A stretch of 51,727 nt of DNA, from contig ONIY01000014.1 in assembly GCA_900318065.1 (NCBI GenBank), positions 1 through 51,727 on the forward strand, read 5' to 3'. Made by a program: the position numbers and the translations under genes. How positions within the stretch are numbered: position 1 is the first letter of the stretch; every line of letters starts with the position of its first letter. The stretch is from an uncultured Prevotellaceae bacterium. Lineage in GTDB: Bacteria > Bacteroidota > Bacteroidia > Bacteroidales > Muribaculaceae. Below, in pieces: positions 40,558-51,727 of this stretch. The notes below the pieces were generated by a model that was not told where the DNA came from, did no database searches, and saw only the letters and a list, made by a program, of their open reading frames with translations.

Positions 40558-40640
40558 AAAAAAGAACGAGGCCCAAAGGTCCCGCTCTTGATGTTTTCAC
40601 AACGGAAATAAATCCTTATTGTGAATTGCTTCAAATTTGT
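40558..40640 (-). ncRNA. tracrRNA
   Basis: Minus-strand RNA of about 83 nt, divergent from cas9. The 5' part (40619-40639) contains AAATTTGAAGCAATTCACAA, which pairs with the 5' end of the CRISPR repeat read from the minus strand (GTTGTGAATTGCTTTCAAAT); the duplex has one bulged U and one G-U wobble. Next come a small nexus-like stem (GGA/TCC, about 40605-40616), a TGT-GAAA-ACA hairpin, and a terminator (40564-40587) followed by six U. Start inferred from the promoter at 40645-40676. It pairs with pre-crRNA so RNase III can cut, and anchors the guide in Cas9. Confidence 0.9.
40564..40587 (-). terminator. tracrRNA terminator
   Basis: GAGCGGGACC / GGCCTCGTTC with loop TTTG on the minus strand, including two G-U wobbles that would be A-C mismatches on plus, then six T (40558-40563). 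This fixes the RNA strand. Confidence 0.88.
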
Positions 40641-40644
40641 TCTG

Positions 40645-40676
40645 CAAATTTAGTTCAAAATAATTAATTCAACAAA
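40645..40676 (-). promoter_or_regulatory. tracrRNA promoter
   Basis: Minus strand: TTTG (40673-40676), 20 nt, TAAATTTG (40645-40652), a perfect Bacteroidetes promoter; transcription should start about 5-8 nt downstream, right at the anti-repeat. Confidence 0.85.
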
Positions 40677-40772: not shown

Positions 40773-43700
40773 ATGAAGAAAGTATTAGGTTTAGATTTAG
40801 GAACTAGCAGCATAGGTTGGGCTGTAGTTAATCAAGCAGAGAATACCGATGAAAAAAGCAGTATTGTCAAACTGGGAGTAAGGGTAAATCCTTTAACGGT
40901 AGACGAAAAAGGAAACTTCGAGAAGGGAAAAAGTATTACAACTACCGCCGACCGCACTCTCAAGCGTGGCATGCGTCGCAACCTGCAACGCTACAAGCAG
41001 CGTCGTGACAAATTAAAAGACCTTCTTATCAATAACAACATAATTTCAAAGACAACCAAGCTGAGTGAAGACGGCATGGGTTCAACTTATCAGACACTTG
41101 AGTTGCGTGCAAAAGCCGCAAAAGAGGAAATTTCTCTTGAAGAGCTGGGCCGAGTACTACTCATAATCAATAAAAAGCGTGGTTACAAGAGCAATCGCAA
41201 GGCAAGCAATGAAGAAGAAGGCGAGCTCATTGACGGCATGGCTGTTGCACGCGAGCTTTACAGAAAAGGCATCACACCAGGTGAATATGTTTATGAACTG
41301 CTAAAGTCTCAAAAGCGCTATAAGCCGTCATTCTATCGCTCTGATTTACAAGCCGAACTAGAAACCGTATGGAACAAGCAGGCTGAGTATTATCCCACCC
41401 TGCTTGATAGCGAGACAAGACGAAAAATAGAAGGCAAGGGCAAAACCGACACAAGGAAATTGTTCTATGCGGCCCACAATATAAGTGCTGCCGAAGAGAA
41501 AGACCGCAAGTTGCGTCAAATCACCTATTATCAATGGCGTGCATTGGCAGCTAAGTCGAGAATAGAACCTGAGCAACTCGTTACCGTCTTGAGCGAGATA
41601 AACGGCGATATTGCAGCCTCTAGTGGATATCTAGGTGCAATAGGTGACCATAGCAAGGAGCTTGAAATCAATCACCTTACCGTGGGCGAATACCTGTTTA
41701 ATATAATCAAGGAGAATCCCCACAATAGCCTGAAAAATATTGTCTTTTACCGCAATGATTACATTCACGAGTTCAACACGATATGGGAAACACAGTCAAG
41801 ATTCCATAAGGAACTCACGCCCGAGTTGAAGGAAAAGATAGCCAATGAGACGATATTCTTCCAGCGCAGGCTTAAATCGCAAAAGGGACTGATTTCTTTC
41901 TGCGAACTTGAGGGAAAAGAGATTACCGTTGGAGGTAAAAAAGTTATGACAGGTTCCAGAGTATGCCCCAAGAGTTCCCCTCTGTTTCAAGAATTCAAGA
42001 TATGGCAAGACCTGAACAACCTGTTGCTTGAGGACAAGACCACCAGGAATGGCGACAAGATACTATTGACTATAAAGCAGAAACAGCGGCTCTATAAAGA
42101 ATTGTATTGCACTAAGGAATTGTCGGCAAAAGATGCCATTAAAGTGCTGGGGCTCAATGATAAGGAATATGGTCTTAACTTCAAGAAGCTGCAAGGCAAT
42201 ATAACTCAAGTCACACTATTCAATGCCTACAAGAGCATAGTTGAGATGACAGGTCACGATGTCGAGAAATTTGACAAAATGGATGCCGAGAACAAGCTGC
42301 ATCTTGTTACCGCAGTCTTAGAAATGCTTGGAGCAAGAACCGATTTCTTGACATTTGACCCAGGCAAAAATGCCGATGAGATGCAACAGAATGCCATGTT
42401 CAAGTTGTGGCACTTGCTCTATTCCTATGAGGACGATAACACCCCCACAGGCAATGGCAAACTAGTAGATCATATCGCAGAGTTGACAGAATTGCCTCAT
42501 GAATATGCCTCGCTCTTAGCTCGAGTGACCTTTGTTCAAGACTTTGGCTCATTGAGCACCAAGGCAATGATGAAAATCTTGCCTTATATGAAAAATGAGG
42601 GCATGATATATTCTGATGCCTGTCAAGCTGCAGGATACAACCATTCCAAGCAATCGTTAACCAAGGAGGAGAAAGAACTCAGGGAACTTGAGAAGCACCT
42701 TGAAGTGCTCCCCAAGAACAGCCTAAGAAATCCCGTGGTAGAGAAGATTCTCAACCAGATGATTCATGTGGTGAATGGTTGCATTGATGAGTTTGGTGAT
42801 TTTGATGAAATTCACATTGAGATGGCTCGTGAGCTCAAGCAAAGCCAAAAGCAACGTGAAGCGACCACTAAGCATATCAATGACAAGAACCGCGAAGTTG
42901 AAAAGATCAAGCAAATATTGAAAGAATCCCCCTTCAACATTCCTAATCCGAGCCGTAATGATGTGCTTCGATATCAGCTCTATGAAGAGTTGGCACCTAA
43001 TGGCTTTAAGACCTTGTATTCCAATACCTACATCAGCAAGGAAAAACTATTTAGTCGTGAATTTGACATTGAGCACATTATTCCTCAGGCCAAAGTGTTT
43101 GACGACTCTTATTCCAACAAGACACTTGAGTCTCGTCAGGTGAACATTGAGAAGTCAAGCATGACAGCCATCGACTATGTGAAGATGAAAGGCGGTGATG
43201 CAGCAGTAGAAGATTACCTCAAGCGCATAGAGTTCCTAAAGAAAGATGGAACACGCAAGAAATATGACAATCTCACAACCACCGAAGACAAGATTAAGAA
43301 TGACTTCTTGAATCGTGACTTGAGCGACTCTCAATACATTGCTCGCAAGGCCAAGGAGTTGTTGCTGAAAGTGTCACGTGATGTTATTGCGACAACTGGC
43401 TCAATCACCGCTCGCCTGCGTGAAGACTGGCAACTTGTTGATGTGATGAAAGAGTTGAACTGGGAAAAATATGACAAGCTGGGTATGACTACCGTGGAGC
43501 GCAACCGTGATGGCCATGAAGTGCGTCGCATCACAGGATGGACAAAGCGTAACGACCATCGCCACCATGCCATGGATGCACTAACTATAGCATTTACTCG
43601 ACATTCCCACATCCAGTATCTCAACAACCTGAATGCCAAAGACGATGGCGAGAAAAAAGACTCCAATATCTATGGCATCGAAAAGAAAGAGCTACTTCAA

Positions 43701-44879
43701 AACCGTCGTTTTGTGCCACCCATCCCTTTAGATGAATTTAGAGCCCAGGCGTTAAATAGCCTTGAAAACATTCTGGTTTCGATGAAAGCCAAGAACAAAG
43801 TTGTCACCAAGAATGTGAACAAGCCCAAAGGCGCAAAACCACAAAACACATTAACGCCACGCGGACAACTGCACAATGAGACCGTCTATGGACAGCGTCA
43901 TCGCTATTCCACCCGTGAAGAGAAAGTGGGCGCTTCATTCACTGCCGAGAAGATCAACAGCGTGTGCCGCAAGGCCTATCGTGATGCTCTCATGCGTAGG
44001 CTTCAAGAAAACGGTGGAGATCCCAAGAAAGCTTTTACTGGCAAAAACTCATTGTCAAAGAATCCATTATATGTTGACGAGCACCACATGGTAAAAGTTC
44101 CTGAAAGAGTGAAGACCGTAGTTCTTGAAACCTACTATACAATAAGAAAACCTATCAATAAAGACTTGAAGATTGACAAGGTAGTTGATGAGGGAATCAA
44201 GCGCATCTTGCAAGCAAGACTGGCTGAAATGGGCGATGCAACCAAGGCCTTCTCCAATCTTGACGAGAATCCCATATGGCTCAACAAGGAGAAAGGTATT
44301 GCAATAAAAAGTGTCACAATAAAGGGAGTGAATGTGGCAACTCCACTACGCCCCAAGCGCGACAAGAATGGCGACATTATAGTTGGCGATGATGGAAATA
44401 TTATCCTCACCAACTTTGTGAGCACATCCAACAACCATCACATAGCAATCTTCGAAGACAGTGATGGTAACTTGCAAGAGCATGTGGTATCGCTTTATGA
44501 AGCAACGGCAAGGAAAAACCGCGACTTGCCTGTGGTTGACCGAGATTATAACAAGGAGCTGGGATGGAAATTCCTCTTCACAATGAAGCAGAATGAGTAC
44601 TTTGTTTTCCCTGACGAGGAAACAGGTTTTGATCCCAGCGACATGGATTTAACTAACCCAGTGAACTTTAGCCTAATAAGTCCACATCTTTTCAGGGTGC
44701 AGAAACTTTCTACATGCAACTATGTGTTCAGGCATCATCTAGAAACAAATGTGGAGGAAGAAAAAGTTCTTAGAAATACTACATGGAAAAGAATTCAAAC
44801 CACTAATTATTTACGGGGTATCGTTAAAGTCCGTGTAAATCACATTGGTCAAATCGTTAAGGTGGGTGAGTACTTATGA
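40773..44879 (+). CDS. cas9: Cas9 endonuclease, type II-C
   Basis: 1368 residues from ATG 40773 (MKKVLGLDLGTSSIGWAV), placing RuvC-I Asp at residue 8; a TTG 27 nt upstream is not needed. Arg-rich bridge helix TLKRGMRRNLQRYKQRRDKL follows. RuvC-II: EIHIEMARELKQSQKQR (Glu 683). HNH: FDIEHIIPQAKVFDDSYSNK (His 768). RuvC-III: RNDHRHHAMDALTIAF (His 932, Asp 935). All catalytic residues are intact, so it should cut both DNA strands. The size is large for type II-C in general but usual for Bacteroidetes members. No csn2 or cas4 accompanies it. It overlaps cas1 by 4 nt. PAM cannot be read from the window. Confidence 0.98.
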   Translation: MKKVLGLDLGTSSIGWAVVNQAENTDEKSSIVKLGVRVNPLTVDEKGNFEKGKSITTTADRTLKRGMRRNLQRYKQRRDKLKDLLINNNIISKTTKLSEDGMGSTYQTLELRAKAAKEEISLEELGRVLLIINKKRGYKSNRKASNEEEGELIDGMAVARELYRKGITPGEYVYELLKSQKRYKPSFYRSDLQAELETVWNKQAEYYPTLLDSETRRKIEGKGKTDTRKLFYAAHNISAAEEKDRKLRQITYYQWRALAAKSRIEPEQLVTVLSEINGDIAASSGYLGAIGDHSKELEINHLTVGEYLFNIIKENPHNSLKNIVFYRNDYIHEFNTIWETQSRFHKELTPELKEKIANETIFFQRRLKSQKGLISFCELEGKEITVGGKKVMTGSRVCPKSSPLFQEFKIWQDLNNLLLEDKTTRNGDKILLTIKQKQRLYKELYCTKELSAKDAIKVLGLNDKEYGLNFKKLQGNITQVTLFNAYKSIVEMTGHDVEKFDKMDAENKLHLVTAVLEMLGARTDFLTFDPGKNADEMQQNAMFKLWHLLYSYEDDNTPTGNGKLVDHIAELTELPHEYASLLARVTFVQDFGSLSTKAMMKILPYMKNEGMIYSDACQAAGYNHSKQSLTKEEKELRELEKHLEVLPKNSLRNPVVEKILNQMIHVVNGCIDEFGDFDEIHIEMARELKQSQKQREATTKHINDKNREVEKIKQILKESPFNIPNPSRNDVLRYQLYEELAPNGFKTLYSNTYISKEKLFSREFDIEHIIPQAKVFDDSYSNKTLESRQVNIEKSSMTAIDYVKMKGGDAAVEDYLKRIEFLKKDGTRKKYDNLTTTEDKIKNDFLNRDLSDSQYIARKAKELLLKVSRDVIATTGSITARLREDWQLVDVMKELNWEKYDKLGMTTVERNRDGHEVRRITGWTKRNDHRHHAMDALTIAFTRHSHIQYLNNLNAKDDGEKKDSNIYGIEKKELLQNRRFVPPIPLDEFRAQALNSLENILVSMKAKNKVVTKNVNKPKGAKPQNTLTPRGQLHNETVYGQRHRYSTREEKVGASFTAEKINSVCRKAYRDALMRRLQENGGDPKKAFTGKNSLSKNPLYVDEHHMVKVPERVKTVVLETYYTIRKPINKDLKIDKVVDEGIKRILQARLAEMGDATKAFSNLDENPIWLNKEKGIAIKSVTIKGVNVATPLRPKRDKNGDIIVGDDGNIILTNFVSTSNNHHIAIFEDSDGNLQEHVVSLYEATARKNRDLPVVDRDYNKELGWKFLFTMKQNEYFVFPDEETGFDPSDMDLTNPVNFSLISPHLFRVQKLSTCNYVFRHHLETNVEEEKVLRNTTWKRIQTTNYLRGIVKVRVNHIGQIVKVGEYL

Positions 44880-45787
44880 TTAAGCGCACGTTATACTTTG
44901 GCAATCCAGCCTATCTGAGCATGAAGAATGCTCAGATGGTGCTGCGCTTGCCTGGTAAAGATGGTGAGGAAGAACAAATTCGCACATTTCCCATCGAGGA
45001 CCTTGGCGTTGTGATTCTTGACCACAAGCAGATTACCATAACACAAGGACTGATGGAGCGGCTGCTTGAGAATAACTGTGCTGTAATTACTTGCGACTCT
45101 ACCCACATGCCCAGCGGTCTGCTTTTGCCTCTTGATGGTCACTCCCGCCAGAGCGAGCGTTTCAAGGCACAACTGGCATGCAGCAAGCCATTAAAAAAGA
45201 ACTTGTGGCAACAGACAGTGCAGGCCAAGATTGCCAATCAGGCATCGGCACTTGAAAAGTGTGTTCCTGGTTGCAAGACCGGAAACATGAGAGCGTGGGT
45301 CGAGGAAGTGCGCAGTGACGACAACATGAACCTTGAGGGCCGTGCGGCAGTCTACTACTGGAGCAACTTCTTTCCAGAGATAAAAGACTTCAAGCGTAAT
45401 CGTGAAGGTTTCTTCCCCAACAACTTGCTTAACTACGGCTACGCCATCTTGCGAGGGGTGATAGCACGCAACCTGGTGGGGTCGGGGTTGTTGCCAACCA
45501 TGGGAATTCATCACCGCAGCAATTATAATGCCTATTGCCTTGCCGATGATATTATGGAACCTTATCGCCCGTTTGTTGATGTGCATGTGAAGCATGTTAT
45601 GAAACACAGTGATGACCCATGGGAGTTGTCGCCAGCCGTTAAACGCGAGCTGCTAACAATTCCTACCCTTGACGTGAAGATTGATGGCAAGCGACGGCCA
45701 CTGATGATTGCTGCCGAGATGACAACTGCATCACTAGCACGATGTTTTACGGGTGAATCTCGAAAGATTTCTTACCCATATTTTTAA
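44876..45787 (+). CDS. cas1: Cas1 integrase, type II
   Basis: 303 residues. Starts at the ATG overlapping the cas9 stop (ATGA). N-terminal beta domain (RTLYFGNPAYLSMKNAQMVL, IEDLGVVILDHKQITITQGL), then the helical catalytic domain: NLEGRAAVYYW (metal-binding Glu 154), MGIHHRSNYNAYCLADDIME (His 212/213 and Asp 224/225) and PYRPFVDVHV. With Cas2 it inserts new spacers at the array end. All metal-binding positions appear present, so adaptation is probably competent. Confidence 0.97.
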   Translation: MIKRTLYFGNPAYLSMKNAQMVLRLPGKDGEEEQIRTFPIEDLGVVILDHKQITITQGLMERLLENNCAVITCDSTHMPSGLLLPLDGHSRQSERFKAQLACSKPLKKNLWQQTVQAKIANQASALEKCVPGCKTGNMRAWVEEVRSDDNMNLEGRAAVYYWSNFFPEIKDFKRNREGFFPNNLLNYGYAILRGVIARNLVGSGLLPTMGIHHRSNYNAYCLADDIMEPYRPFVDVHVKHVMKHSDDPWELSPAVKRELLTIPTLDVKIDGKRRPLMIAAEMTTASLARCFTGESRKISYPYF

Positions 45788-45802: not shown

Positions 45803-46144
45803 ATGGCATGTTGTCAGCGATTCAGTGAATATAGGATTATGTGGGTTCTTGTGTTTTTTGATTTGCCAACCGATAATCGAAAACATCGAAAAGCCTATGC
45901 TACATTCCGCAAGGGGTTGATGCAAGATGGGTTCACCATGATACAGTTCTCAATCTACGCAAGGCACTGTGCCAGTGCACAAAACGCCACTGTTCACGTT
46001 CAACGAGTGAAGAACATGTTGCCTGCCGATGGCAACATTTGCATCATGACCATTACCGACAAGCAGTTTGGCAATATGGAAATTTTCAACGGAAGGAGTC
46101 CAGATACTCCAAAATGTGGAGGACAGCAACTCGAACTCTTTTGA
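45803..46144 (+). CDS. cas2: Cas2 adaptation protein
   Basis: 113 residues from ATG 45803 (MACCQRFSEYRIMWVLVFFD). Homologues normally carry the RFSEYRIMW segment, so this start is preferred to the internal Met at 45839 or a GTG at 45800. Ferredoxin-like fold: WVLVFFDLPTDNRKHRKAY (Asp after the first strand), FRKGLMQDGFTMIQFSIYAR, VHVQRVKNMLP and NICIMTITDKQFGNM. It forms the complex with Cas1. Fifteen nt separate it from cas1. Followed by a hairpin at 46148-46177 and then the array. Confidence 0.96.
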   Translation: MACCQRFSEYRIMWVLVFFDLPTDNRKHRKAYATFRKGLMQDGFTMIQFSIYARHCASAQNATVHVQRVKNMLPADGNICIMTITDKQFGNMEIFNGRSPDTPKCGGQQLELF

Positions 46145-46147
46145 AAC

Positions 46148-46177
46148 AACAAATCCACCCTAAGAGGTGGATTTGTT
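46148..46177. terminator. 12-bp hairpin between cas2 and the CRISPR array
   Basis: Perfect stem AACAAATCCACC / GGTGGATTTGTT with 6-nt loop CTAAGA, 3 nt after the cas2 stop. It can fold in either transcript: end of the cas operon on plus, or end of the crRNA precursor on minus. Confidence 0.75.
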
Positions 46178-46253: not shown

Positions 46254-49200
46254 GTTGTATTATCCGATACAAAGATACAAATTTGAAAGCAATTCACAAC
46301 GGTGATGCCGAGTGGGTTGTCACCGCTGCCGTTGTATTATCCGATACAAAGATACAAATTTGAAAGCAATTCACAACCCATGCAAGGTGCTTAGTGAGAA
46401 GACCAAGTTGTATTATCCGATACAAAGATACAAATTTGAAAGCAATTCACAACAAGCGGTGGCACTATCAGTTATGACAACACGTTGTATTATCCGATAC
46501 AAAGATACAAATTTGAAAGCAATTCACAACATCTCGCGCAGGGCATCAAGTTGAGCGTTAGTTGTATTATCCGATACAAAGATACAAATTTGAAAGCAAT
46601 TCACAACAAGCGGCGTGTCGTGCAGGCACCGCCCGTGTTGTATTATCCGATACAAAGATACAAATTTGAAAGCAATTCACAACCACTTGCCAGGTGTGCC
46701 TTTGTAATGGCCAGTTGTATTATCCGATACAAAGATACAAATTTGAAAGCAATTCACAACTCGGGAACTGTTCTCAACAATTGACACAGGTTGTATTATC
46801 CGATACAAAGATACAAATTTGAAAGCAATTCACAACAGTACTACAACTAAATACATTATTGAAAGGGTTGTATTATCCGATACAAAGATACAAATTTGAA
46901 AGCAATTCACAACAGTCTTATCTCACTTAACGTCTTTTCAGTTGTTGTATTATCCGATACAAAGATACAAATTTGAAAGCAATTCACAACTAAGACATTC
47001 CCCATTGTCAACGACCTCACGTTGTATTATCCGATACAAAGATACAAATTTGAAAGCAATTCACAACAGGAGATTGTGAACACCTATAACGACATTAGTT
47101 GTATTATCCGATACAAAGATACAAATTTGAAAGCAATTCACAACTGACTTTATCAATCGCTATGACCGCTGGAGTTGTATTATCCGATACAAAGATACAA
47201 ATTTGAAAGCAATTCACAACGCAAGTATTAATTCGATTGTGTCCAGTCCTGTTGTATTATCCGATACAAAGATACAAATTTGAAAGCAATTCACAACAGG
47301 CACGCAATGAAAACGAGGCAAGCGAAAGTTGTATTATCCGATACAAAGATACAAATTTGAAAGCAATTCACAACACCAGGGCAGTTGCCGATTTCCTGCG
47401 TGCCGTTGTATTATCCGATACAAAGATACAAATTTGAAAGCAATTCACAACCGGCACGAAGACGGGGACACGCTTGGAGCGGTTGTATTATCCGATACAA
47501 AGATACAAATTTGAAAGCAATTCACAACTCTTATTGTAGTTGACACTTTAATCATAAGTTGTATTATCCGATACAAAGATACAAATTTGAAAGCAATTCA
47601 CAACCATCTTTCGTTGACATCGTGCCATCAAGTGGTTGTATTATCCGATACAAAGATACAAATTTGAAAGCAATTCACAACAAAGGATTGGCTTTAATCG
47701 CAGCACTAAAAGTTGTATTATCCGATACAAAGATACAAATTTGAAAGCAATTCACAACTAACACAGGCTTTGTTCTCACTGTTGGTGCGTTGTATTATCC
47801 GATACAAAGATACAAATTTGAAAGCAATTCACAACATTTCCTCCGTATGTTAAGTTATATCCGTTGTTGTATTATCCGATACAAAGATACAAATTTGAAA
47901 GCAATTCACAACGGTCGAGTATCGACTTCATTTCTTCAGATGGTTGTATTATCCGATACAAAGATACAAATTTGAAAGCAATTCACAACTGAAAGCAATT
48001 CACAACTCAATCTGCTCGCATTGCTTGTGAATGCGGTTGTATTATCCGATACAAAGATACAAATTTGAAAGCAATTCACAACTTAGCGCGTCGTCGCCCT
48101 CGTCACCATCGGGTTGTATTATCCGATACAAAGATACAAATTTGAAAGCAATTCACAACGTTGTAGCTCTTAATCCAAAACTCTTTGCGTTGTATTATCC
48201 GATACAAAGATACAAATTTGAAAGCAATTCACAACAATTTAATCGGGCTTGCCTGCTTTGCCCTGGTTGTATTATCCGATACAAAGATACAAATTTGAAA
48301 GCAATTCACAACAATCTTTTGGTAGTCGATGCTGTTCTTATGTTGTATTATCCGATACAAAGATACAAATTTGAAAGCAATTCACAACTGAACGCCAAGC
48401 CGACCGACGCCCTCGACGTTGTATTATCCGATACAAAGATACAAATTTGAAAGCAATTCACAACTGTTCATCGGCTGCAAAAGCATTGGGCATCGTTGTA
48501 TTATCCGATACAAAGATACAAATTTGAAAGCAATTCACAACATCGAAGCAAGTAACAGTCTTGCCGATGCGTTGTATTATCCGATACAAAGATACAAATT
48601 TGAAAGCAATTCACAACTTATCAGGACCAACTCAGTAGAATGTGGCGTTGTATTATCCGATACAAAGATACAAATTTGAAAGCAATTCACAACGCGCTGC
48701 CGTGCTTGCCATTCTCTCACCGGGTTGTATTATCCGATACAAAGATACAAATTTGAAAGCAATTCACAACGCTCGACACCACGCTCTACGTTTATGTAGG
48801 TTGTATTATCCGATACAAAGATACAAATTTGAAAGCAATTCACAACACGCACCATTTGTTTCTGTTCTTTTCGTGGTTGTATTATCCGATACAAAGATAC
48901 AAATTTGAAAGCAATTCACAACATATGATGCAAATCTTGGTTATGGCGGAGGTTGTATTATCCGATACAAAGATACAAATTTGAAAGCAATTCACAACCT
49001 GTTTGCCTATTTCCTCGATTGTCCTTACGTTGTATTATCCGATACAAAGATACAAATTTGAAAGCAATTCACAACTGTGGCGAAGAAATTGCAAAACGTA
49101 TTTCGTTGTATTATCCGATACAAAGATACAAATTTGAAAGCAATTCACAACAGTAATAGATTTATGCATATTAGACGGAGTGTTGTATTATCCGATACAA

Positions 49201-51180
49201 AGATACAAATTTGAAAGCAATTCACAACACACAGTTTGGACTTAATAAATATGGCAAGTTGTATTATCCGATACAAAGATACAAATTTGAAAGCAATTCA
49301 CAACTTTTGCCTGTCTTTTTAGAAATAAGGCACGGTTGTATTATCCGATACAAAGATACAAATTTGAAAGCAATTCACAACATCTTTGCCCTCATGAATG
49401 GCGATTTTGTGGTTGTATTATCCGATACAAAGATACAAATTTGAAAGCAATTCACAACTTTGCAGAAGATATTATAAATCTTGCAGGGTTGTATTATCCG
49501 ATACAAAGATACAAATTTGAAAGCAATTCACAACGACTCCCAGCAAGCGGTGAAAGGCTTGATGGTTGTATTATCCGATACAAAGATACAAATTTGAAAG
49601 CAATTCACAACGCAAAGCACGTGCGAAATAAATTTATTAAGTTGTATTATCCGATACAAAGATACAAATTTGAAAGCAATTCACAACACCGCCAAATGTC
49701 GAGCGCATAGGCTTGCGTTGTATTATCCGATACAAAGATACAAATTTGAAAGCAATTCACAACGCCACTCCTGATGTAACCCCCTCGGCTTTGGTTGTAT
49801 TATCCGATACAAAGATACAAATTTGAAAGCAATTCACAACGCTCATTCAGACATTCCTAAATGCATATAGGTTGTATTATCCGATACAAAGATACAAATT
49901 TGAAAGCAATTCACAACTTTTAGTTTTGCATATTATTTTGTTTTTAGTTGTATTATCCGATACAAAGATACAAATTTGAAAGCAATTCACAACCAAAAGT
50001 GGCTGATAATTCTCCTCAATACCGTTGTATTATCCGATACAAAGATACAAATTTGAAAGCAATTCACAACGGAAATTTACCTCTAAATTTCCCCGTTTGG
50101 TTGTATTATCCGATACAAAGATACAAATTTGAAAGCAATTCACAACGACGAAGAAGAGGATAACTCATAGTAAAAGTTGTATTATCCGATACAAAGATAC
50201 AAATTTGAAAGCAATTCACAACTGCCCGATAGGCGCAAAGTGGATGATGCGAGTTGTATTATCCGATACAAAGATACAAATTTGAAAGCAATTCACAACG
50301 TCGCTGTCGTTGAATACTAAAAAACACCGTTGTATTATCCGATACAAAGATACAAATTTGAAAGCAATTCACAACACGGCTATGAGAACGTGCTGACAAC
50401 TGCATGTTGTATTATCCGATACAAAGATACAAATTTGAAAGCAATTCACAACCGCCACGATGGCAGCCTTCATCTGCTCGTTGTTGTATTATCCGATACA
50501 AAGATACAAATTTGAAAGCAATTCACAACGCCCTGCTCATGGTCAATCTTGGCACACTGGTTGTATTATCCGATACAAAGATACAAATTTGAAAGCAATT
50601 CACAACAGTGCGATGTTGATGATAGTCTTTAAAGTCGTTGTATTATCCGATACAAAGATACAAATTTGAAAGCAATTCACAACATCCTCATATTCGTGGA
50701 TGCTGTCAGTTAGTTGTATTATCCGATACAAAGATACAAATTTGAAAGCAATTCACAACGCCACGATATGATTGCGAATAACGTGTTGCGTTGTATTATC
50801 CGATACAAAGATACAAATTTGAAAGCAATTCACAACCATTATTTGCAAAGAATGCTACGATGTAGGTTGTATTATCCGATACAAAGATACAAATTTGAAA
50901 GCAATTCACAACTCGTTGCACGTCGTGACCATTCCGAGGGCTGTTGTATTATCCGATACAAAGATACAAATTTGAAAGCAATTCACAACAGTGATAAATT
51001 GCTAAATATAGCAATAGCGGTTGTATTATCCGATACAAAGATACAAATTTGAAAGCAATTCACAACCTGCATGGGCTACCAGTGAGCAGCGCAAATGTTG
51101 TATTATCCGATACAAAGATACAAATTTGAAAGCAATTCACAATTCTCTAACAGGGTGGTTTTCTGCGGAGTTAGTTGTAT
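46254..51180 (-). CRISPR. Type II-C CRISPR array, 64 full repeats
   Basis: The 47-nt repeat begins GTTGTATTATCCGATACAAA and ends AAAGCAATTCACAAC on plus; in crRNA sense it starts GTTGTGAATTGCTTTC. Full copies run from 46254-46300 to 51097-51143; all look identical except the last, which ends AAT. Of the 63 spacers between them, 38 are 30 nt, 24 are 29 nt and one is 46 nt (47990-48035, containing a 17-nt copy of the repeat end). After the last repeat come another 30 nt and a 7-nt repeat start (GTTGTAT, 51174-51180). Strand is taken from the tracrRNA anti-repeat. Apparent proteins across the array are only translations of the repeat. Confidence 0.99.
46270..46299 (-). promoter_or_regulatory. 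Repeat-embedded promoter (first of 64 identical sites)
   Basis: In crRNA sense, repeat positions 2-4 are TTG and 24-31 are TATCTTTG (46270-46277 in this copy), 19 nt apart, matching the promoters of tracrRNA, priA and others in this window. The same -7 octamer TATCTTTG stands before priA. The expected start lies near repeat position 37-41, just before each spacer. Confidence 0.6.
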
Positions 51181-51360
51181 CAATAATGCCGTTTCATCCT
51201 TGTGCTTGTGGTTCCACATGACCATTTGGCCGTAGACCTTGCGCTTAAAATAGTTATCTTATTCACAATAAGCGTTTTAGTGCTGTAATTATAAGAATTT
51301 TGTCAAAATCCGTAAAATTTTTGGCTTGTGGTGTGCCCCTATGAGTGGTCTCGCATGATG
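51181..51360. other. Sequence beyond the distal array end, no gene assigned
   Basis: A minus-strand open frame at about 51098-51240 would encode DNYFKRKVYGQMVMWN and continue into the last repeat; it could be a decayed gene fragment but has no recognised relatives. The rest is AT-rich with no clear feature. Confidence 0.3.
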
Positions 51361-51500
51361 GATGTTGTTGACCCTCTACCGAGGCTCGGGATAAGGAAAA
51401 ACTCACGGATGCCCCACACCCTTCGGGGTGCGCGCCGTGGGGTTGCATCATTTCGCCCCCTCGGGGGCGCCTTGGCCTATGGCCAACTCGCAATGGTCCA
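51361..51500 (+). repeat. Multi-hairpin repeat element, copy C
   Basis: Matches copy B (26451-26600): GATGTTGTTGACCCTCTAC, GAGGCTC, ATAAGGAA, ATGCCCCAC, CCTTCGGGGTGCGCGCCG, TCATTTCGCCCCC, TTGGCCTATGGCCAA. No REP-like GGGACGGTT hairpin accompanies this copy. Confidence 0.78.
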
Positions 51501-51564
51501 TGTCGTGCGTATTAATAAACTATAAAAAGAATATATAGAAATTATTAATTTGGAAACTATTTCG

Positions 51565-51572
51565 TAACTTTG
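51565..51572 (+). promoter_or_regulatory. -7 box of the right-edge gene
   Basis: TAACTTTG followed by CAAGTTGA, identical over 17 nt (GTAACTTTGCAAGTTGA) to 27074-27090. A GGACAAGGC / GCCTTGTCC hairpin (51619-51638) lies in the leader before the ATG at 51684. Confidence 0.5.
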
Positions 51573-51683
51573 CAAGTTGAGGGAAAAGTGAGTGTTATAC
51601 TCCCCCCTGACCCCAGCGGACAAGGCGTGCCTTGTCCCTGCATTGAGGGAACTTTCTTTCGATATTTAATAGAGAATTTTTTA

Positions 51684-51727
51684 ATGGCTGAAGAATTAGA
51701 ACTACAAGATAACACGCAACAGCAGCA
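51684..51727 (+). CDS. 5' end of an unidentified gene
   Basis: Only 14 codons are inside the window (MAEELELQDNTQQQ). The promoter at 51565-51572 and a leader of about 100 nt support a real start. Too short to identify. Confidence 0.5.
   Translation, partial: MAEELELQDNTQQQ

What the first reader, a model, noticed from the sequence alone, without database searches (positions are those of the whole stretch)
46254..51143. Every CRISPR repeat appears to carry its own Bacteroidetes-type promoter
In crRNA sense the repeat has TTG at positions 2-4 and TATCTTTG at 24-31, 19 nt apart. This equals the spacing of the clear promoters here (tracrRNA TTTG-N20-TAAATTTG, priA TTTG-N20-TATCTTTG, 27052 TTTG-N19-TAACTTTG). 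Transcripts would start in the last ~10 nt of the repeat, so each spacer is made without a leader promoter and perhaps without 5' processing. Repeat-embedded promoters are established for Neisseria and Campylobacter type II-C arrays with other sigma-factor boxes; I do not know of a description for the Bacteroidetes sigma factor. The array would thus hold 64 promoters in series.
Basis: partly seen in the sequence, partly recalled or inferred. Interest (0 to 1): 0.8.

Follow-up and report, generated by a model that had tools for sequence, protein, structure and literature searches.

The report
CRISPR repeats carrying Bacteroidota promoter boxes
Each of the 64 repeats of a CRISPR-Cas9 immune array in this bacterium contains what looks like a complete promoter of the kind its own phylum uses, so each stored virus memory could be transcribed separately; close relatives keep the promoter letters while the sequence just after them changes.

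Summary
Observation confirmed. The array has 64 repeats of 47 nt; in crRNA sense (minus strand) each has TTG at 2-4, N19, then TATCTTTG at 24-31. TTG at N19/N20 is the spacing that I derived from Bacteroidia gene promoters. No box, even with one mismatch, lies in the 584 nt upstream.

It is not chance: TAnnTTTG is in 60 of 103 distinct long II-C repeats of Bacteroidia (shuffles: mean 2.05, max 8), and in 0 of 31 non-type-II repeats. In the window's genus 17 of 20 repeats have it; in the 16 of these placed on a Cas9 tree the six consensus letters never change, against 3-8 changes per column just downstream. tracrRNA pairing fades before TTTG.

Best reading: repeat-embedded promoters like those of Neisseria and Campylobacter II-C arrays, but with the Bacteroidota box, placed mid-repeat. 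The start should fall inside the repeat, so 5' trimming is probably still needed. Transcription is untested. Strict boxes are mainly Bacteroidales; some relatives lack them. A repeat promoter had been proposed for Flavobacterium from TTG alone (PMC8092290).

The parts
46254..51143 (-). type II-C CRISPR array, 64 repeats of 47 nt; crRNA sense is the minus strand
   Evidence: orientation from the anti-repeat of the tracrRNA
51113..51120 (-). -7 box TATCTTTG of the first repeat in crRNA sense (repeat 51097-51143); the same box stands in all 64 repeats
   Evidence: 64 intact boxes
51140..51142 (-). TTG at repeat positions 2-4, the putative -33 element, N19 upstream of the box
   Evidence: spacing peak N19/N20
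46270..46277 (-). -7 box of the last repeat in crRNA sense (46254-46300, cas2 side); it would transcribe into the leader
40619..40643 (-). tracrRNA anti-repeat; pairs with repeat positions 2 to about 24-28
40645..40675 (-). tracrRNA promoter TTG-N20-TAAATTTG
40773..44879 (+). cas9 (TIGR01865)
44876..45787 (+). cas1 (TIGR03639, type II)
45839..46144 (+). cas2 (TIGR01573); the ORF is open from 45800, start inferred
46148..46177 (.). perfect 12-bp inverted repeat between cas2 and array; possible terminator for both directions, but it fails the T-run scan
   Evidence: (no terminator found)
51174..51182 (-). 9-nt remnant matching the 3' end of a further repeat beyond the array, box lost

Best explanation
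Every repeat carries a promoter for the main sigma factor of Bacteroidota (TTG-N19-TATCTTTG) in crRNA sense, opposite to the cas genes. RNA polymerase can start at each repeat, about 4-8 nt after the box (near repeat position 35-39), copy the rest of that repeat, the next spacer and the following repeat. The first ~24 nt of that following repeat then pair with the tracrRNA, which has its own promoter of the same type, and RNase III cuts there; the 5' end, still carrying repeat tail and full spacer, is probably trimmed. New spacers, taken to enter at the cas2 end, are thus expressed although they lie last in crRNA sense. Shown: boxes, strand, spacing, conservation, limited pairing, lack of an upstream box. 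Inferred: transcription start, RNase III step, trimming, polarity of acquisition.
For: (1) 64 of 64 repeats have the box. (2) Enrichment: TAnnTTTG in 60 of 103 distinct long repeats of Bacteroidia against shuffles mean 2.05, max 8, and 1 of 103 antisense (the first count was 63 of 106 because one array, L156, entered four times); 0 of 31 non-type-II repeats of the same class on either strand. (3) Motif-blind EM finds TAtCTTTG in the repeat 3' parts (63 clusters, LLR 197 against at most 29.5 in 6 shuffled sets) and TA..TTTG upstream of 55 tracrRNAs (146 against at most 22.7). (4) In 495 intergenic TAnnTTTG sites upstream of ORFs, TTG peaks only at N19 (9.1%) and N20 (9.7%), against 1.0-3.4% at the other gaps from 10 to 29; no such peak in 1,941 coding sites. 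In the genus 10 of 16 boxed repeats have N19 and 6 have N20. (5) On a Cas9 tree of 16 same-genus repeats the six fixed columns take 0 steps, the two 'n' columns 2 and 1, the nine columns after the box 3-8 each. (6) Pairing does not explain it: the tracrRNA locus matches octamer positions 1-8 in .95 .58 .42 .29 .25 .05 .02 .05 of 55 loci. (7) No box with at most 1 mismatch in 51144-51727 minus. (8) In the same genus the three II-C loci with boxless 36-nt repeats (L021-L023) each have TAATTTTG 90-91 nt upstream of the array; boxless L120 and L125 have a TAnnTTTG 51 and 30 nt upstream: 5 of 5 against 4 of 39 boxed arrays, and 3 of those 4 are repeat remnants.
Against: No transcript data. TTTG is kept in lineages that lost TA (GATCTTTG in L041, L148, L232, L241, L243; TTCTTTGA in other classes), and box position 4 (C) and the G before the box change less often than the tail (position 4 has IC 1.31 against 0.28 in tracrRNA promoters), so another constraint may act too. 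Strict boxes are mainly Bacteroidales (21 of 25 named repeats); Flavobacteriales are mostly TAnnTTTA/TTAG-like (10 relaxed, 1 none, 2 loci strict). The gap to TTG is 18 in 12 and 21-22 in 8 of 60. Evidence item 8 is post hoc: over all boxless Bacteroidia arrays it is 5 of 22 against 4 of 40, p = 0.26. Outermost-repeat remnants keep the box in 12 of 19, no more than random truncation would give (about 0.575, my estimate). Array orientation follows repeat length rather than the box: boxless long repeats are also opposite to cas9, 15 of 15. Authors on R. anatipestifer reported no promoter in its 47-bp repeats (PMC5006608, passages).
Confidence: 0.77

Rival explanations
1. The box is held by another job of the repeat DNA or RNA, such as recognition by Cas1-Cas2 during spacer insertion or processing of the duplex; its likeness to a promoter is incidental and the array is read from elsewhere.
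For: TTTG survives where TA is lost, also in other classes of the phylum; C at box position 4 and G before the box are more conserved than a promoter needs.
Against: In the genus the changes inside the octamer fall only on the two positions that the promoter consensus leaves free; the motif equals that of the tracrRNA promoters; N19/N20 spacing to TTG in 16 of 16 same-genus repeats measured; the box moves relative to the repeat start in some lineages (starts 17-32); pairing with tracrRNA does not reach TTTG.
Confidence: 0.13
2. The array is transcribed from one external promoter at its far end or by read-through, and the repeat boxes are weak or silent.
For: Type II-A and II-B arrays are read from a promoter upstream of the array (PMC3656092, passages); boxless Bacteroidales arrays here have such a promoter.
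Against: No box with at most one mismatch in the 584 nt upstream of this array on its strand; 64 consensus boxes within it. The window ends there and other promoter types were not excluded.
Confidence: 0.07
3. Shared ancestry alone: the repeats descend from one repeat that happened to hold the octamer.
For: All compared repeats are homologous in the tracrRNA-pairing half.
Against: 0 steps in six columns while nine adjacent columns took 3-8 steps on the same tree; 32 of 63 clusters keep the strict box and 25 more are one letter off, against 1.2 and 17.3 in shuffles.
Confidence: 0.03

Closest known systems
Campylobacter jejuni type II-C array (PMC3656092, passages seen)
   Same: cas9-cas1-cas2 with tracrRNA; a promoter element in every repeat; one transcript per spacer
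   Different: There the -10 (GGTAAAAT) ends the repeat and transcription starts at spacer position 5, so only the 3' end needs cutting; here the box is the Bacteroidota -7 element in mid-repeat and the expected start is inside the repeat
Neisseria meningitidis type II-C array (Zhang 2013: not read; recalled and as cited in PMC5006608 and PMC7038990)
   Same: repeat-embedded promoters, no external promoter needed, RNase III dispensable there
   Different: extended -10 at the repeat end for an ordinary sigma-70; 36-nt repeat (recalled)
Flavobacterium columnare and F. psychrophilum II-C (PMC8092290, PMC10309648; passages seen)
   Same: same phylum; authors propose repeat-encoded promoters and transcription toward the leader
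   Different: They point only to TTG 33-35 bp upstream of each spacer; RNA support in F. columnare was eight reads. In the passages seen, TAnnTTTG is named in PMC10309648 only for the cas9 promoter. The Flavobacterium-type 36-nt repeats seen here (L034, L040, L052, L056) lack the box
Riemerella anatipestifer CRISPR1 (PMC5006608, passages seen)
   Same: 46-47 nt II-C repeat; the strain here (L164) has TATCTTTG in its repeat
   Different: Authors report that no promoter was found in the repeats and place promoters in the 107-bp leader, using the BDGP neural network tool
sigma-ABfr promoters of Bacteroides (PMC7366714, passages and section 8)
   Same: TAnnTTTG at -7 and TTTG at about -33
   Different: Known for genes and small RNAs; that strain has no annotated CRISPR array

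Membership tests
type II-C CRISPR-Cas | Cas9, type II Cas1, Cas2 | tested here: met
   TIGR01865 514.6 bits, TIGR03639 298.6 bits, TIGR01573 75.3 bits
type II-C CRISPR-Cas | tracrRNA with anti-repeat | tested here: met
   anti-repeat at 40619-40643 with a promoter just upstream
type II-C CRISPR-Cas | no csn2 or cas4 in the locus | not tested
   cas2 is followed directly by the array; the wider locus was not searched for these genes
arrays with repeat-embedded promoters (Neisseria/Campylobacter kind) | promoter element in every repeat on the crRNA strand | tested here: met
   64 of 64, by sequence only
arrays with repeat-embedded promoters (Neisseria/Campylobacter kind) | transcription start mapped at each repeat-spacer unit | not testable with these tools
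   no RNA data
arrays with repeat-embedded promoters (Neisseria/Campylobacter kind) | no external promoter in front of the array | tested here: met
   no TAnnTTTG with at most 1 mismatch in 584 nt; other promoter types not excluded
arrays with repeat-embedded promoters (Neisseria/Campylobacter kind) | start within the spacer so that no 5' trimming is needed | tested here: not met
   by position only: the box ends 16 nt before the spacer, so the expected start is in the repeat
sigma-ABfr promoter | TAnnTTTG -7 box | tested here: met
   TATCTTTG
sigma-ABfr promoter | -33 element at N19-N20 | tested here: met
   TTG at N19 in the window; derived optimum N19/N20. TTG here is also the fixed GTTG repeat start, and it is lost in 24 of 29 variant outermost repeats
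sigma-ABfr promoter | start a few nt after the box | not testable with these tools
   needs 5'-end RNA sequencing

The most novel reading that the evidence does not exclude
The 3' half of II-C repeats is an exchangeable promoter module whose box follows the host's sigma factor: TAnnTTTG in mid-repeat in Bacteroidales, weaker relatives of it in Flavobacteriales, other -10-like ends elsewhere. Within one genus two II-C subfamilies solve the same problem differently: boxed repeats with no upstream box, or boxless repeats with a conserved promoter about 90 nt upstream of an array that runs with cas9.
Probability: 0.35. Interest if true: 0.62.

Novelty: new variant of a known kind. Interest (0 to 1): 0.5.

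Why it matters
It would extend repeat-embedded CRISPR promoters to the sigma factor of Bacteroidota and explain how very long arrays in gut and rumen Bacteroidales express all spacers, the newest included. It also questions a printed statement about 47-bp repeats (PMC5006608), gives a motif for orienting such arrays, and warns that an array cloned into E. coli may stay silent because its promoters need the Bacteroidota sigma factor.

Tried and rejected
Considered and rejected or left open. (a) Chance and composition: rejected by shuffles, the antisense strand and non-type-II repeats. (b) tracrRNA pairing as the cause of conservation: rejected for TTTG, possible for the first letters of the box. 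(c) A decay test on outermost repeats: mismatch rates 0.34 in positions 1-16, 0.043 in the box, 0.010 after it (39 ends) looked like proof, but remnant lengths fit outside-in truncation just as well; counted as inconclusive. (d) Sigma preference of other classes from upstream regions: too little sequence, inconclusive. (e) Box against array orientation: orientation follows repeat length, not the box. (f) Type I-C (TIGR01863, 2 of 296 genomes) and Cas6 (PF10040, 3 of 376) as control markers were too rare; Cas1 (PF01867) was used instead. (g) Rfam: the repeats match CRISPR-DR49 at 33.4 bits, below its gathering score of 41. (h) The Fisher test on upstream promoters was made after seeing the data. 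(i) A MAFFT column profile of long repeats blurred the box because of indels and was not used. (j) Literature searches that brought up no paper naming TAnnTTTG in CRISPR repeats: (open-licence PMC full text only; several term sets were narrow; one search listed 20 of 46, 10 of 877, 10 of 17).

Rows dropped or changed before counting: one search lists them (short or non-II-C-like consensus, six non-II rows by length or copy number, repeats re-oriented by their GTTGTG start when the anti-repeat search hit array debris or picked the other half); L018 (truncated) and L134 were put back by hand. In some searches the loci L100, L101, L102 and L139 (named copies of other loci) and L018 were left out of the end analyses. 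In one search the outermost 'repeat' of L034 and L052 is doubtful.
Full report
WHAT IS THERE. The window (contig C26 of a 2.99-Mb draft genome) holds a type II-C locus: cas9 40773-44879, cas1 44876-45787, cas2 to 46144, a tracrRNA on the minus strand near 40640, and an array of 64 repeats at 46254-51143. A relative placed in the same genus (G030) appears among the named contigs as a Muribaculaceae MAG (L100, Cas9 82% identical). The anti-repeat sets the crRNA sense on the minus strand, opposite to the cas genes.

IS IT MORE THAN CHANCE. I collected 247 loci: 87 from the genus and phylum by Cas9, 80 named by a Cas9 alignment (capped at 80 of 568) and 80 by Cas1 (40 of them not type II by Cas1 score). 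Repeats were oriented by the anti-repeat without regard to the motif, or by the GTTGTG start where that search failed. Of 103 distinct long (40 nt or more) II-C repeats of class Bacteroidia, 60 contain TAnnTTTG in the 3' part; 500 shuffles gave a mean of 2.05 and a maximum of 8; the antisense strand has 1 (which collapses four entries of one array that one search had counted apart). The looser TAnnTT[TAC][GA] fits 87 of 103 (shuffles about 17). Repeats of 36-37 nt: 1 of 14 strict. Other classes of the phylum: 2 of 11 long, 4 of 17 short. Non-type-II repeats in Bacteroidia: 0 of 31 strict, 2 relaxed. A motif-blind search finds TAtCTTTG in the repeats and TA..TTTG upstream of tracrRNAs.

PROMOTER GRAMMAR. 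In 495 intergenic TAnnTTTG sites upstream of ORFs, TTG is enriched only at gaps 19 and 20. The window's gap is 19. In the genus 17 of 20 repeats carry the box; gaps were measured in 16, with 10 at N19 and 6 at N20. Across all boxed long repeats the gap is 19-20 in 37 of 60, 18 in 12, 21-22 in 8, others 3. Inside the window the full pattern occurs 64 times in the array and 7 times elsewhere, one of them at the tracrRNA, against 0.85 expected.

SELECTION. On a Cas9 tree the six fixed letters of the box took no step among 16 same-genus repeats, the two free letters took 2 and 1, and the nine columns after the box 3 to 8 each. The two free positions of the promoter consensus are thus the ones that vary. 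The tracrRNA locus is complementary to the first T of TTTG in 25% and to the other three letters in 2-5% of 55 loci, so duplex pairing cannot hold those letters.

WHERE DOES TRANSCRIPTION START. The -7 element is centred near -7 (PMC7366714, section 8), so the start should lie about 4-8 nt after the box, in the last 9-13 nt of the repeat. That differs from C. jejuni, where it lies at spacer position 5 (PMC3656092, passages). Fp2Cas9 works best in vitro with 24-26-nt guides (PMC12609912, passages). I therefore expect 5' trimming here; this is inference.

NATURAL EXPERIMENT. Three same-genus loci (L021-L023) have a different II-C with 36-nt boxless repeats. All three carry TAATTTTG 90-91 nt upstream of the first repeat, and their arrays run with cas9. 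Boxless Bacteroidales L120 and L125 also have an upstream box. Of 39 boxed long arrays with a visible end, 4 have one, and 3 of these 4 are truncated repeats. Outside Bacteroidales this does not hold (all boxless Bacteroidia arrays: 5 of 22), so it is a post hoc lead.

AGAINST. TTTG persists where TA is lost. Flavobacteriales mostly have TTTA or TTAG at the place of TTTG. TTG 2-4 is lost in 24 of 29 variant outermost repeats while the box is intact in 23 of 29, so the box may matter more than the -33 element; but truncation from outside explains that pattern too. Position 4 of the box and the G before it are conserved beyond promoter need.

KNOWN WORK. Repeat promoters are established in C. 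jejuni (PMC3656092), reported for Neisseria (recalled; cited in PMC5006608 and PMC7038990), suggested for C. cellulolyticum (PMC7038990), and proposed for F. columnare and F. psychrophilum from TTG alone (PMC8092290, PMC10309648). PMC5006608 says that the 47-bp repeats of R. anatipestifer lack promoters; the R. anatipestifer repeat here has TATCTTTG (L164). In these papers I saw passages, plus one section of PMC7366714. In PMC5704556 (B. fragilis) 12 of 60 matching places were shown; they report no obvious promoter in the type I-B leader and none of those shown names a promoter in repeats. No paper naming TAnnTTTG in repeats came up.

VERDICT. A new variant of a known kind: II-C arrays with a promoter in every repeat, here of the Bacteroidota type, strongly supported by sequence and not yet by RNA.

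Noticed in passing
window 47990-48035: One spacer is 46 nt long because it starts with a second copy of the last 17 nt of the repeat (plus strand TGAAAGCAATTCACAAC), as after slippage or a faulty insertion.
   Followed up: partly
window 51144-51182: Beyond the outermost repeat there is a spacer-sized stretch and then a 9-nt match to the repeat end (GTTGTATCA, one mismatch), a relic of an older, longer array.
   Followed up: partly
L021, L022, L023 (same genus as the window): A second II-C type with a Cas9 of about 1,200 aa and 36-nt repeats, array on the cas9 strand, and a conserved TTTGGTAATTTTG element about 90 nt upstream of the array.
   Followed up: partly
L041, L148, L232, L241, L243: Repeats with GATCTTTGAC at the place of the box; the tracrRNA promoters of L041 and L232 read TACATTCG and that of L243 TATCTTCG, so the -7 consensus may differ in these lineages.
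   Followed up: no
L084, L085, L090, L097 and other non-Bacteroidia classes: 46-nt repeats share TTCTTTGA and often GATATT at about 32-37, about 17 nt after TTGCTT or TTGATT, which resembles a sigma-70 promoter; not tested statistically.
   Followed up: no
L141: A contig labelled Candidatus Fibrimonadaceae carries a Cas9 52% identical to the alignment's first sequence (the window's) and a 45-nt repeat with TAAATTTA; transfer or misbinning.
   Followed up: no
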